In this document: in pieces, positions 2,916-8,235 of the stretch
Position numbering within the stretch: position 1 is the stretch's first letter
How the letters are laid out: the number at the start of each line of letters is the position of its first letter
From: Synechococcus sp. SB0662_bin_14
GTDB taxonomy: Bacteria > Cyanobacteriota > Cyanobacteriia > PCC-6307 > Cyanobiaceae
Assembly: GCA_009840445.1 (NCBI GenBank)
Contig: VXNS01000082.1
Location: forward strand, 1-64,000
Direction of reading: 5' to 3'
Length of the DNA stretch: 64,000 nucleotides
Notes under the pieces: model-generated
Database searches by the model: none
What the model saw: the letters and a program-made list of their open reading frames with translations, nothing else
Told to the model about the DNA's origin: nothing
Position numbers and translations under genes: made by a program

Positions 2916-3540
2916 GGAACCATCCCCCATCGATCACCCGATTTTGACGGAGAGCCTGGCGCTGATCCGGCAGCGCCTTCCCCCCACCGGGCTCCACGGT
3001 GTGCAACAGGACGTACTGGTGCGGCTGATCCACAGCAGCGGGGATTGGCGCCTGGCTACAGCATTGCGCTGCCCCGCTGCCGCCTGTGGGCAGGCCATGG
3101 CCGCCCTGGCCCGTGGCGCACCCGTTCTTACCGACACCGCCATGGCGGCCGCGGCAGTGACCCCCATGGCCCGGCGCACTTTTGCCAATCCCGTGATCAA
3201 CGGCCTGGGCTGGGCGCCCGAGGCAGCCCCCCCTGGGCAAACCCGCACCGCCCTGGGCCTGGCCGTTGCTGTGCAGCACCACCCCCACAGCGTGGTGGTG
3301 ATCGGCAGCGCCCCCACGGCCCTGCTCCACCTGCTGGCCTTGGGACGGCAAGGCCGGATTGAACCGCCGGTGCTGGTGGTGGGGATGCCGGTGGGCTTTG
3401 TGGGGGTGCGGGAAGCCAAGACGGCGCTGGCCCGTAGCGGCTGGCCCCAGGTGCGCCTGGAAGGGAGCCGGGGTGGGGCCGGCCTGGCGGCAGCGGTGGT
3501 CAATGCCCTGCTGCGCCGGGCTTGGCTGGATTCTCAATAA
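2914..3540 (+). CDS. cobH: Precorrin-8X methylmutase
   Basis: Moves the C-11 methyl group to C-12 to make hydrogenobyrinic/cobyrinic acid in B12 synthesis. The 208-residue protein has the CbiC/CobH features: the N-terminal helix DHPILTESLALI, the core segment VLTDTAMAAAAV with the family's D-(S/T) motif, the NPVINGLGWAPEA-like loop, and the C-terminal GMPVGFVGVREAK motif with the conserved Gly-Phe-Val. Its ATG at 2914 overlaps the opposite ATG of holA. cobK at 58878 belongs to the same pathway. This is the last recognisable core gene before the accessory island. Confidence 0.93.
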   Translation: MEPSPIDHPILTESLALIRQRLPPTGLHGVQQDVLVRLIHSSGDWRLATALRCPAAACGQAMAALARGAPVLTDTAMAAAAVTPMARRTFANPVINGLGWAPEAAPPGQTRTALGLAVAVQHHPHSVVVIGSAPTALLHLLALGRQGRIEPPVLVVGMPVGFVGVREAKTALARSGWPQVRLEGSRGGAGLAAAVVNALLRRAWLDSQ

Positions 3541-3595
3541 GGCGTTGATCGTTGAGTTAAAATCATGCCCGTTAGATGGAGTCAACAAAGGCACC

Positions 3596-4659
3596 ATGGG
3601 AATTTTGCAGTGTGGCTCCCGTTTCGCGGGAAACGTGTTCCTATTTGCAGCGCTTGTATTCGCCATCCCCTTTGCAGCGCAAGCTGATCCGGCCGGATAT
3701 AAAACCTTCTCAAGGTTCGCGCCCCACCACGGACAGGATGTGGAGGGAGGAATTTGGTATCCAGCGTTCGGATCAGGCCGTGAGACGACGATCTCTGAAA
3801 ACGCGGCATTCTACGGCGTGACCGTCTCCGAAGACGCCCCGATGGCCGATGGTGGCCATCCGCTGGTGCTGCTGAGTCATGGTCTCGGTGGCCATTTCTA
3901 CTCACTTGCATGGCTGGCCGCTGGTCTTGCCGAGCGTGGAGCCATCGTGATTGCCGTCAACCATCCCAACTCTACACTTTTGGAGATTTTGACATTGAGA
4001 CAGCGCTTGATCACTGGACACGGGTTCAGGATCTGAGCCTCGTGCTCGACAGAGCCTTTGACGACCCGGACATCGCCCCCCATGTGGACCCGGACCGCAT
4101 CATGGCAGCCGGTTTCTCCTACGGCGGCTGGACAGCACTCTCGGCGGGAGGACTGCGTGGTGATCTTGGTGGCTTTGCGATCTACTGCAAGTTGGCTTTG
4201 CGACCCGACAATCAGGCCATTTCCACCTTTTGTCAGGATCTTGCCCGGGCAAAGGTCGATATTCCTGCGCTTTCGGCAGAGGCATGGGCTGCATCCTACG
4301 CAGACCACAGGATCACCCATGTTGCAGCCATCGATCCAGGCCTGACCTGGGGGCTGGATGCGACCCATACCACCGACCTGGTCAGTCACGTGACCCTTGT
4401 CGGACTGGGAAAAGACAGCGACCGGCTTATGGCAGCCGACTTTGACGCCAGTGGTTTTGCGGCGTTATTGCCTGATGCGGACATCTTGCACCTCTCGCCA
4501 GCATTTCATTTCTCCGCCTTGCCACTCTGCAAGCCCAATGCGGCGGTGATCCTGGAAGAAGAAGGGGACGATCCAGTCTGTACTGATCCTGTCGGCACTG
4601 ACCGCGCCGCCCTGCACTCGGTGATTGTCGACAAGCTGGCTACCGACCTGGCTCTCTGA
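3596..4659 (+). pseudogene. Secreted alpha/beta hydrolase (dienelactone hydrolase/PAF-acetylhydrolase type), frameshifted
   Basis: The first frame (ATG 3596) gives a signal peptide ending FAAQA, then a hydrolase N-terminus with the oxyanion motif LLSHGLGGHFYS. After AVNHPNST it leaves frame. The second frame resumes at about 3972 with TFGDFDIETALDHW, carries the nucleophile elbow GFSYGG, and runs to TGA at 4659. Both halves fit one protein of about 350 residues, so a single net frameshift lies at about 3971-3984, beside a short T run. Catalytic Ser, Asp and His would be split across the frames. The type resembles alphaproteobacterial periplasmic hydrolases, suggesting transfer. It may be truly dead or a sequence error. 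Confidence 0.8.
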
Positions 4660-4684: not shown

Positions 4685-4732
4685 ATGAAGCGATTGGGTG
4701 CGTCTAATCGCCTCACCCTGTGAAGCGATTAG
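4685..4732. promoter_or_regulatory. Palindromic operator-like site before the Fic gene
   Basis: CTAATCGCCTCAC (4704-4716) and GTGAAGCGATTAG (4720-4732) are inverted repeats of 13 bases with one mismatch and a 3-base spacer. A further direct half-site ATGAAGCGATTGG lies at 4685-4697. The palindrome ends 9 bases before the Fic ATG at 4742, so a bound protein would block initiation, or an RNA hairpin would cover the ribosome site. The Fic protein itself ends in a winged helix-turn-helix, making it a plausible autoregulator. That regulation is inference. Confidence 0.6.
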
Positions 4733-4741
4733 CATCACACC

Positions 4742-5902
4742 ATGGACAGCGCACCCAGCGGCAGTTGGATTTGGGAGCAGCCCCAGTGGCCACGGTTTCG
4801 CTGGGAGCACCAGCAATTGCACCCTGGACTGACAGCAGCAAATCAGGCCCGGCAACACCTGCTGGCCAAGCTGGAGGCTCTGGATCCATCCCTTCAACAG
4901 GAGGCTGCCGCTTCCCTGCTGAGCCGCGAGGGTCTGAACACCACCGCCATTGAAGGGGAAACGCTAGATCCCGCCATGGTGCGCTCCTCCCTGGCCCGCC
5001 GTTTGCAGCTCCCTCTGCAGTCTGGCCAGCCTCAGCCCTCAGCCCAGGTGGAAGGCCTGGTGGACTTGCTCATGGCCGCTACTACCCAGCTCTCAGCGCC
5101 CCTCACCGTAGAACGGCTCAACGGCTGGCATCGGCAACTGTTTCAAGGCGGCGCCTCCAGCCTGCGCTCTGTTCCCGTTGGCGTGTTGCGTAGTGGGTCC
5201 GTGCCAATGCAGGTGGTGTCTGGCGCCATCGGCCGGGAGCGGGTTCACTTTGAAGCACCACCAAGCTGTGGACTGCCCGGGATGCTGGCGGTGTTTCTCC
5301 ACTGGTTCAACACCCCACCGCAAGATCTCCATCCCCTGCTGCGCTCCGGGGTGACCCACCTGTGGTTTGTCACCCTTCACCCCTACGAAGACGGCAATGG
5401 CCGCCTGGGCCGGGCATTAACGGAACGGGTGCTGGCGCAAGCCAGCCTGGCGGAGGTCAACACCTCCCCCCTGGTGATTCATGCGCTCGGTCTGTCCAGC
5501 CAACTCTTGCGCCAACGACAGGCTTATTACCAGATGTTGGAGGCCGCCCAGCGAGGCAACCTGGACATTACCCCTTGGCTGGGCTGGTTCCTGGAGCAGG
5601 TGAGGGCTGCCGCCGTGGCCAATGTGGCTGTTGTGGAAGCTGTCAAAGCCAAAGCCCTGTTCTGGTGGATCCACCGCACCAACGACTTCAATCCACGGCA
5701 ACGGAAGCTGCTGAACCGCCTCTGGGATGCTGAGCCCGAAGGATTTCAGGGGGATCTCACCATACGTAAGGCCGTTGGCCTCACCCGCGTGAGCCGAGCC
5801 ACCGCTTATCGGGATTTGAGTGACTTGGTGAAGAAGGGAGCCTTGGTTCCCTGTGGACGGGGGCGGAGCGGGGCTTATCGGTTGGTGTTGCGGCAGGGGT
5901 GA
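4742..5902 (+). CDS. Fic family protein (class II) with C-terminal winged HTH
   Basis: Fic enzymes transfer AMP or other nucleotides to protein hydroxyls. The 386-residue product has a DUF4172-like N-terminal region and a Fic core with the complete motif HPYEDGNGRLGR at about residues 210-222; the catalytic His is present. An inhibitory-helix motif TTAIEGE near residue 66 matches (S/T)xxxE(G/N), so it is a class II, self-inhibited Fic. The last 60 residues (IRKAVGLTRVSRATAYRDL) form a winged HTH. The target is unknown; many such proteins act in toxin-antitoxin-like or stress circuits. No antitoxin partner is seen, consistent with built-in inhibition. It follows a palindromic site and sits in an accessory island. 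Confidence 0.9.
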   Translation: MDSAPSGSWIWEQPQWPRFRWEHQQLHPGLTAANQARQHLLAKLEALDPSLQQEAAASLLSREGLNTTAIEGETLDPAMVRSSLARRLQLPLQSGQPQPSAQVEGLVDLLMAATTQLSAPLTVERLNGWHRQLFQGGASSLRSVPVGVLRSGSVPMQVVSGAIGRERVHFEAPPSCGLPGMLAVFLHWFNTPPQDLHPLLRSGVTHLWFVTLHPYEDGNGRLGRALTERVLAQASLAEVNTSPLVIHALGLSSQLLRQRQAYYQMLEAAQRGNLDITPWLGWFLEQVRAAAVANVAVVEAVKAKALFWWIHRTNDFNPRQRKLLNRLWDAEPEGFQGDLTIRKAVGLTRVSRATAYRDLSDLVKKGALVPCGRGRSGAYRLVLRQG

Positions 5903-6041: not shown

Positions 6042-6653
6042 ATGGACAGAATTTTCCTCTATTGGGACAACTCGAATATCTTTATCAGTGCTCAGGACTT
6101 GGCCGCAGAGCGGGAAGGTTGGGGCGCCCGTAGCCGGGTCCGCATCCATTTCCCCACCATGATCCGGCTGGCTCGCCGGCAACGGCCCATCGGGCGCGCT
6201 CTGGCGGTGGGGTCGGTTCCGCCACAGTTGCGGAGCGTCTGGAACGAACTTGAGGCTGAGGGGATTGAGGTGCAACTCTTTGAGCGGGGCAAGCTGGGGG
6301 GGCAAGAGCAGGAGGTGGATCAGGCGCTGCAGACCGCCATGCTGCGTGATGCCCTGGACAACAACGGCGACCCTGGCACGGCAGTGCTTCTCAGTGGCGA
6401 CGGGGCTGGTTTTGACGATGGCTGCGGGTTTCATGCTGACCTGGAGCGGATGCACAGGAAGGGATGGCGAATTGAAATTCTGGCCTGGCGTCACAGTTGC
6501 AATCACCGCATGAGGAAGTGGGCTGAGGAGAAGGGCCGCTTCATTGCTCTGGACGATTTTTATTCTTGTGTGACCTATTTAGAGGAGCCCCAACCTGGCC
6601 AACCCTGGGCAGAGCCCCGAGCGCCGCAGCCGTTGCCTGCTCTGGAGTTCTGA
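6042..6653 (+). CDS. NYN domain (PIN-like) ribonuclease-type protein
   Basis: The 203-residue product starts MDRIFLYWDNSNIFISAQDL, the typical N-terminus of the LabA/NYN family, with the first acidic metal ligand in YWDNSN. Further acidic residues occur in QEVDQALQTAMLRDAL and LLSGDGAGFD, so the predicted active site of this PIN-like nuclease fold is intact. NYN proteins generally cleave or bind RNA; the substrate here is unknown. No signal peptide or membrane segment is present. It lies between the Fic gene and a decayed DUF2306 gene. Some NYN nucleases act in defence or RNA decay, but the sequence does not decide between these. Confidence 0.82.
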   Translation: MDRIFLYWDNSNIFISAQDLAAEREGWGARSRVRIHFPTMIRLARRQRPIGRALAVGSVPPQLRSVWNELEAEGIEVQLFERGKLGGQEQEVDQALQTAMLRDALDNNGDPGTAVLLSGDGAGFDDGCGFHADLERMHRKGWRIEILAWRHSCNHRMRKWAEEKGRFIALDDFYSCVTYLEEPQPGQPWAEPRAPQPLPALEF

Positions 6654-7116: not shown

Positions 7117-8235
7117 ATGGCGTGGGCATTCCGCAGGAGAATCAAGGTCATCCCTGGCGTCACCATCAACCTCAGCAAGAGCGGCATCAGCACCAGCGTT
7201 GGGGTCAGAGGCGCATCCCTGACTTTCAAGTCGGATGGGGTCTATCGGAACTTGGGTCTCCCAGGCACAGGCATCTACAGCAGGGAGAAGGTTGGTGCAT
7301 ACGGGAGGCAAGGGGCGGGCAAGGCAACGGCCGCCCCAACGCTAGAGCCTGCTCAGGCGTCACCCGACTATTCCTTCAGGAGTGCAGACCCTGTCCAGGT
7401 CACCAGTGAAAGTCTACTGGGTCTCCAGCGGGCAGTGATCGACGCCAGGAAACAGAGGCAGGAGTTGGTGAAGGACGCTGCCTCCATCCAGCAGTCACTG
7501 GCCTCCCTGAACTGGGTTGCCCTGCTCTGCAAGATCTGCCTGATCTACTTCCTTGTCGCCCTCATCAGGAAGAGATTTCAGTCAGGCATCAAAGCAAGAG
7601 GGGAGGCGCTTCAAGAGGTTGAGCAAGCCATCGAGAACTCATCAGTCAGTCTTGCTATCGCCATGGACGATGACTGTCGTGCTGCCTTCAGGGCAGTTCA
7701 GAGCACTTTTGACAGATTGTCCAATTGCCAGTTCATATGGGACCTCACCTCTGCCAGCAACGTGGATCAGGTACGGTCCAGATCTGCAACATCCATCAGT
7801 TTTGACAGGTCTCTCACCAAGTGCCAACGCAAGGCGCTGTCTGGCATCACGTCTCCTGAGCTGCCCCTCGTCTTTCTGAATCGCAATGGGGCAGACATTT
7901 ACATCTACCCGGGGTTTTTCGTCATGGACGACTCCCTGGCAAGGCTGGGGATCCTGGATATGAAGGAACTGGAAGTGGATTACACACCCAATCGCTTCAT
8001 CGAGAAAGAGGCCATCCCCCAGGACAGCAAGAGGGTTGGCCAGGTGTGGGAAAAGTCCAATAAGGACGGCAGCAGGGATAGGCGTTACTCGGAGAATCGG
8101 CAGTGGCTCGTCATGGAGTATGGAGAAGTCACCTTCAGATCTGGATCAGGTATCCATGAGAAATACCTGTTCAGCGATGCCGAGGCAGCAGAAAGCTTTG
8201 TCGATTTGCTTGTGAAATTTAAGAATCTGATTTAA
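7117..8235 (+). CDS. DUF4236 domain protein
   Basis: The 372-residue product begins MAWAFRRRIKVIPGVTINLS, followed by SKSGISTSVGVRGASLTF and GLPGTGIYSREK, the diagnostic DUF4236 N-terminal domain (residues 1-60). A hydrophobic stretch at about residues 130-150 (WVALLCKICLIYFLVALI) may be a membrane segment, preceded by a short coiled-coil-like region. The C-terminal 200 residues are unrecognised but contain ordered, non-repetitive sequence. Function of DUF4236 proteins is unknown; they are often accessory. Its last 17 bases overlap the end of the K+ channel gene on the other strand. Confidence 0.8.
   Translation: MAWAFRRRIKVIPGVTINLSKSGISTSVGVRGASLTFKSDGVYRNLGLPGTGIYSREKVGAYGRQGAGKATAAPTLEPAQASPDYSFRSADPVQVTSESLLGLQRAVIDARKQRQELVKDAASIQQSLASLNWVALLCKICLIYFLVALIRKRFQSGIKARGEALQEVEQAIENSSVSLAIAMDDDCRAAFRAVQSTFDRLSNCQFIWDLTSASNVDQVRSRSATSISFDRSLTKCQRKALSGITSPELPLVFLNRNGADIYIYPGFFVMDDSLARLGILDMKELEVDYTPNRFIEKEAIPQDSKRVGQVWEKSNKDGSRDRRYSENRQWLVMEYGEVTFRSGSGIHEKYLFSDAEAAESFVDLLVKFKNLI

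What the first reader, a model, noticed from the sequence alone, without database searches (positions are those of the whole stretch)
4685..4741. Palindromic operator-like site abutting the Fic start
A 13-base inverted repeat with one mismatch (GTGAAGCGATTAG) and an additional direct half-site sit immediately before the ATG of a Fic gene whose protein ends in a winged HTH. Position and geometry suggest autorepression by the Fic protein's own DNA-binding domain, coupling enzyme level to promoter occupancy.
Basis: partly seen in the sequence, partly recalled or inferred. Interest (0 to 1): 0.6.

Follow-up and report, generated by a model that had tools for sequence, protein, structure and literature searches.

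The report
Self-operator of a DNA-binding Fic enzyme
The repeat before this Fic gene in a sponge-symbiont cyanobacterium is a real promoter-overlapping operator, and relatives across many phyla carry similar arrays whose letters track the DNA-reading helix of the Fic protein itself, so the enzyme most probably shuts off its own gene.

Summary
The repeat is real: three ~10-bp half-sites (TGAAGCGATT; +,-,+) at 4686-4695, 4706-4715 and 4721-4730, overlapping a TAGCAT -10-like box six bases before the ATG of a DUF4172-Fic-wHTH gene (4742-5902) in a Ca. Synechococcus spongiarum-like genome. The palindrome alone is only weakly unusual. The footprint is not: picocyanobacterial orthologs keep the sites, spacing and -10, and the same half-site precedes 40-50% identical Fic genes in several other phyla. 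In other lineages the half-site differs, and the change follows the recognition helix: 94 of 94 scored loci obey 'helix [RK]A..[FYW] <=> TGAAG' (rule refined after seeing data; five changes on the tree, all concordant, only two on well-supported branches). A prediction noted before fetching held-out plasmid genes held: helix QDT/ADT gives TGCGG, 5 of 5. A second noted prediction failed in its one aromatic test case. Most likely the Fic protein binds its own promoter and represses it, as shown for CccR. Binding and repression are inferred, not measured. New beyond CccR: an array with a fixed ~19-bp convergent pair and helical-turn spacing between pairs, and a candidate specific DNA ligand for the CbFic2 branch, for which only random DNA was tested.

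The parts
4686..4695 (+). half-site 1, TGAAGCGATT
   Evidence: sequence; conserved upstream of orthologs
4706..4715 (-). half-site 2, TGAGGCGATT (one mismatch to sites 1 and 3)
   Evidence: convergent with site 1 at 20 bp start-to-start (19-20 in nearly all relatives)
4721..4730 (+). half-site 3, TGAAGCGATT; divergent from site 2 at 15 bp
4730..4735 (+). TAGCAT, -10-like box (TANNNT) overlapping half-site 3, exactly 6 nt before ATG; suggests a leaderless transcript
   Evidence: TANNNT at the same place in 17 of 18 picocyanobacterial relatives; L015 has CAGGTT; transcription start not measured
4742..5902 (+). fic gene, 386 aa: DUF4172, Fic (HPYEDGNGRLGR from H213; inhibitory T67xxxE71G72), C-terminal wHTH
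   Evidence: Pfam, AlphaFold model pLDDT 88.7, best structural match 8CIL, motif check
5795..5833 (+). recognition helix of the wHTH (residues 352-364); residues 352, 353 and 356 are the top-ranked predictors of half-site positions 6, 3 and 4
   Evidence: model helix H352-364; whole-protein column scan

Best explanation
The array is the operator of the Fic gene itself. The C-terminal winged HTH of the Fic protein reads TGAAGCGATT half-sites; a dimer sits on the convergent pair 1+2 and a further subunit or dimer on site 3, covering the promoter and repressing the gene (negative autoregulation). Shown by computation: the array, its conservation, its overlap with promoter-like boxes, and its match to the protein's recognition helix. 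Inferred: physical binding, dimer arrangement, repression, and possible DNA-induced change of AMPylation state as reported for the relative CbFic2.
For: Sites, spacing and the box before ATG are kept in picocyanobacterial orthologs at about 57-61% protein identity and above. The same half-site precedes 40-51% identical Fic genes in Omnitrophota, Elusimicrobia, WOR-1, Nitrospirae, delta- and betaproteobacterial contigs. The blind caller gave at most 1 shuffle in 40 reaching the score in 73 of 92 rows (a few rows are duplicate copies of one locus) and at most 1 in 60 in 17 of 23 held-out plasmid loci. Predictions were noted before fetching: QDT/ADT helices gave TGCGG in 5 of 5 strict cases (2 of 2 SDT/PDT as well), none of the other 16. 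Of all protein columns, recognition-helix residues 353, 356 and 352 best predict half-site positions 3, 4 and 6. Partial Mantel r 0.44 given Fic-domain distance, 0 of 2000 permutations. Helix class and site class agree in 94 of 94 loci, with 5 changes of each on the tree. In most non-cyanobacterial relatives of the TGAAG class TATAAT overlaps the second half-site and a TTG-type -35 box lies 17 bp upstream, the layout of a repressor site. In 300 family genomes all 13 pattern matches with at most 1 mismatch lie at Fic loci or remnants. Precedent: CccR.
Against: No binding or expression data. The helix-site correlation is partly phylogenetic: only two concordant changes stand on well-supported branches, too few for a sign test, and single-residue tests had 1-2 such pairs. 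The 94/94 rule was refined after the data were seen and on loci that passed an array score. Pre-noted prediction P2 (aromatic h6 gives TGAA) failed in its only held-out aromatic case, L124 (QDTAYRD, TGCGG). For half-site positions 5 and 7-9 the best predictor columns lie in the Fic domain or outside the recognition helix, as expected of clade history. Some homologs (L131, L101, L103) have no convincing array.
Confidence: 0.82

Rival explanations
1. A different transcription factor of the host binds the array and regulates fic.
For: Nothing here shows directly which protein binds; any wHTH regulator could in principle read such repeats.
Against: The same half-site accompanies Fic genes in unrelated phyla, and its variants track the Fic protein's own helix; good matches in 300 family genomes lie only at Fic loci.
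Confidence: 0.07
2. The Fic protein binds its array but activates or has no effect on transcription, the array serving mainly as a storage or switching site for the enzyme.
For: For CbFic2, DNA binding induces dimerisation and shifts activity towards deAMPylation.
Against: The sites overlap the -10 box and the -35/-10 spacer, the layout of a repressor; CccR represses.
Confidence: 0.09
3. The inverted repeat acts as an RNA hairpin (terminator, attenuator or translation control).
For: In some relatives the last pair lies in the likely 5' leader next to a Shine-Dalgarno-like GGAG.
Against: A -10-like box six bases before ATG would put the cyanobacterial array upstream of the transcript; half-sites keep letter identity including the direct copy, rather than compensatory pairing.
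Confidence: 0.02

Closest known systems
CccR of Yersinia pseudotuberculosis (PMC9755527)
   Same: Fic enzyme with C-terminal HTH, class II inhibitory helix, binds two inverted half-sites near -35/-10 of its own promoter and represses it.
   Different: Two half-sites with a 26-bp spacer (AGATAATCAT-N26-ATGATAATCT) instead of three or four at about 19-20 and 15 or 25-26 bp steps; reported as a secreted effector. CccR sequence not fetched or aligned here.
CbFic2 of Coxiella burnetii (PDB 8CIL, PMC10628234)
   Same: Closest solved structure (E 1.4e-87; Foldseek rank 1), same DUF4172-Fic-wHTH layout, DNA binding through the wHTH.
   Different: Only random DNA was tested by the authors and no specific site or autoregulation is described; studied as a histone-modifying enzyme.
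SoFic / EcSofic anti-phage Fic (PADLOC SoFic; PMC12249575)
   Same: PADLOC SoFic model matches the window protein (E 2.6e-43); dimer with a C-terminal domain that controls activity.
   Different: Far below NCBIfam's SoFic cut-off (52 against 550 bits); Foldseek TM about 0.58; no operator found in the passages read.

Membership tests
Autorepressing Fic-HTH proteins (CccR type) | Fic domain plus C-terminal HTH in one protein | tested here: met
   Pfam and AlphaFold model
Autorepressing Fic-HTH proteins (CccR type) | inverted half-sites overlapping the gene's own promoter | tested here: met
   array and -10-like box; the promoter is predicted, not measured
Autorepressing Fic-HTH proteins (CccR type) | binding of the protein to the sites and repression of its promoter | not testable with these tools
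   only indirect support from helix-site correlation
Class II Fic AMP transferases | Fic motif Hx[FY]x[DE]GNGRxxR and (S/T)xxxE(G/N) helix N-terminal to it | tested here: met
   HPYEDGNGRLGR from H213, T67-E71-G72
SoFic anti-phage defence | curated SoFic equivalog score | tested here: not met
   NCBIfam NF046030 52 bits against a cut-off of 550; PADLOC model matches
SoFic anti-phage defence | protection against phage | not testable with these tools
   no phenotype data

The most novel reading that the evidence does not exclude
The operator array is also an allosteric ligand: Fic bound to its own promoter is held in a dimeric, deAMPylating state, so promoter occupancy sets both the amount and the activity of the enzyme; a phage region carrying a nearly exact copy of such an operator without a Fic gene (L176/L177) would then be a decoy or a hijacked control site.
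Probability: 0.2. Interest if true: 0.8.

Novelty: new variant of a known kind. Interest (0 to 1): 0.62.

Why it matters
The authors of CbFic2 left open whether proteins of this branch recognise a specific DNA sequence, and a search of the held literature found one autoregulation case (CccR). The arrays give concrete candidate binding sites for many Fic proteins at once and a helix-to-site rule that can be tested by simple binding assays.

Tried and rejected
One search covered the genome with a wrong 4-base spacer and is discarded in favour. A terminator or chance palindrome: chance is plausible for the palindrome alone but not for the conserved array. A wider regulon: half-site pairs elsewhere in the own genome are weak (one 3-mismatch match); single half-sites at 7988 and 16125 lie inside ORFs; the three lone half-sites on contigs C2, C9 and C85 were only read by eye. 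Repeated matches in genome G114 belong to a repeated sequence with overlapping ORFs and no Fic homology. Viral-contig matches L174 and L175: L175 lies inside an ORF; neither is near a Fic gene in the DNA held. Strict phylogenetic sign tests of single residues lacked power. A literature search for the half-site letters gave 21 papers; the ten listed are unrelated by title, and the other eleven were not looked at.

Full report
Observation. The inverted repeat is as described: CTAATCGCCTCAC and GTGAAGCGATTAG around a 3-bp loop at 4704-4732, plus a direct half-site at 4686-4695. By itself such a palindrome is only mildly unusual (four sites in the window against 1.1 per shuffle), but no shuffle in 1500 of the 110 bp upstream reached the three-copy score. 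The matching half-site pairs occur in the genome with at most 1 mismatch only here.

Context. [quoted passage not shown] The Fic motif HPYEDGNGRLGR and the inhibitory TxxxEG motif are present. The nearest named genome in genome contigs is Ca. Synechococcus spongiarum SP3 (90% identity). A second copy in the same genome (C80) is split over two frames, and in the 140 bp read upstream only one clear half-site copy is visible.

Footprint. Picocyanobacterial orthologs keep the +,-,+ half-sites at 20 and 15 bp and a TANNNT box exactly 6 bases before ATG; 17 of 18 aligned starts have the box, the exception being L015. The match to a -10 box directly before the start codon suggests a leaderless transcript; this is inference. 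In most non-cyanobacterial relatives with the same half-site, TATAAT overlaps the second half-site with a TTG-type -35 box 17 bp upstream.

Breadth. Fic genes at 40-51% identity in other phyla carry the same half-site, and more distant ones carry variants such as TGAGCCGATT, TGAGGCGATT and TGCGGAGATT. The caller, which knows nothing of the motif, scored above all but at most one of 40 shuffles in 73 of 92 rows; some rows are two copies of one locus fetched by different tools, so this is not 92 independent genes.

Geometry. Among adjacent called sites, convergent pairs are 18-20 bp apart start-to-start in 102 of 108 cases; divergent pairs cluster at 14-16 (38), 25-26 (18) and 35-36 (3). The caller ignores spacing. 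Steps of about 10.5 bp suggest neighbouring dimers on a fixed face of the helix; this is inference.

Recognition helix. Over all protein columns, residues 353, 356 and 352 rank first as predictors of half-site positions 3, 4 and 6; all lie at the start of the recognition helix in the model (H352-364). For positions 5 and 7-9 the first-ranked columns lie elsewhere in the protein. Partial Mantel correlation given Fic-domain distance is 0.44 with 0 of 2000 permutations as high. Three predictions were noted before fetching plasmid homologs. P1 (arrays) held in 17 of 23 by the caller. P3 (QDT/ADT gives TGCGG) held in 5 of 5 strict cases and 2 of 2 similar ones (SDT, PDT), with none among the other 16. 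P2 (aromatic h6 gives TGAA) failed in its only held-out aromatic case, L124. A rule refined afterwards (h2 R/K, h3 A, h6 aromatic <=> TGAAG) fits 94 of 94 loci that passed the array score; the tree needs five changes of each trait, with only two independent pairs on well-supported branches, both concordant. The correlation is therefore strong but partly shared ancestry.

Specificity. In 300 family genomes the 13 pattern matches with at most one mismatch lie at Fic loci or remnants; matches with 2-3 mismatches include many others, of which eight were fetched and showed no Fic homology. In viral contigs both matches to the divergent pair lie beside Fic genes.

Mechanism and precedent. CccR represses its own promoter through its HTH and palindromes near -35 and -10. 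CbFic2, the closest structure, binds random DNA, dimerises on it and shifts to deAMPylation; its authors call for work on a specific sequence. Its printed helix (TSRTTAYRE) resembles the window's SRATAYRD, so the TGAAG class of site is a prediction for it, untested here. Most likely, then, the window protein binds its own operator and represses its gene.

Limits. No binding, expression or transcription-start data. One literature library was searched; subscription journals are largely absent.

Noticed in passing
L177:3560-3620 and L176:1620-1680 (IMG/VR contigs, same region): Phage-like contigs (a terminase-like large protein and an HNH-like protein by eye) carry an intergenic copy of an Omnitrophota-type Fic operator (50 of 59 bases like L105's, one mismatch in the 45-bp core); no Fic gene was found in either record. 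A decoy, a remnant or a control site for another gene are all open; the records may be fragments.
   Followed up: partly
window 3359-4659: An alpha/beta-hydrolase-like reading frame (by eye) just upstream of fic appears split between two frames around 3910-4036: a frameshift or an assembly error.
   Followed up: no
G000:C80:660-1837 (L111): Second fic copy in the same genome, in two frames; only one clear half-site copy is visible in the 140 bp upstream, and sites 2 and 3 seem to be missing.
   Followed up: partly
G063:C130:833-857 and 1060-1084 (L186): Two operator-like pairs upstream of a broken fic copy, about 227 bp apart.
   Followed up: no
window 6042-6653: NYN-domain gene directly downstream of fic on the same strand; no array was looked for before it beyond the genome-wide pattern searches.
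   Followed up: no
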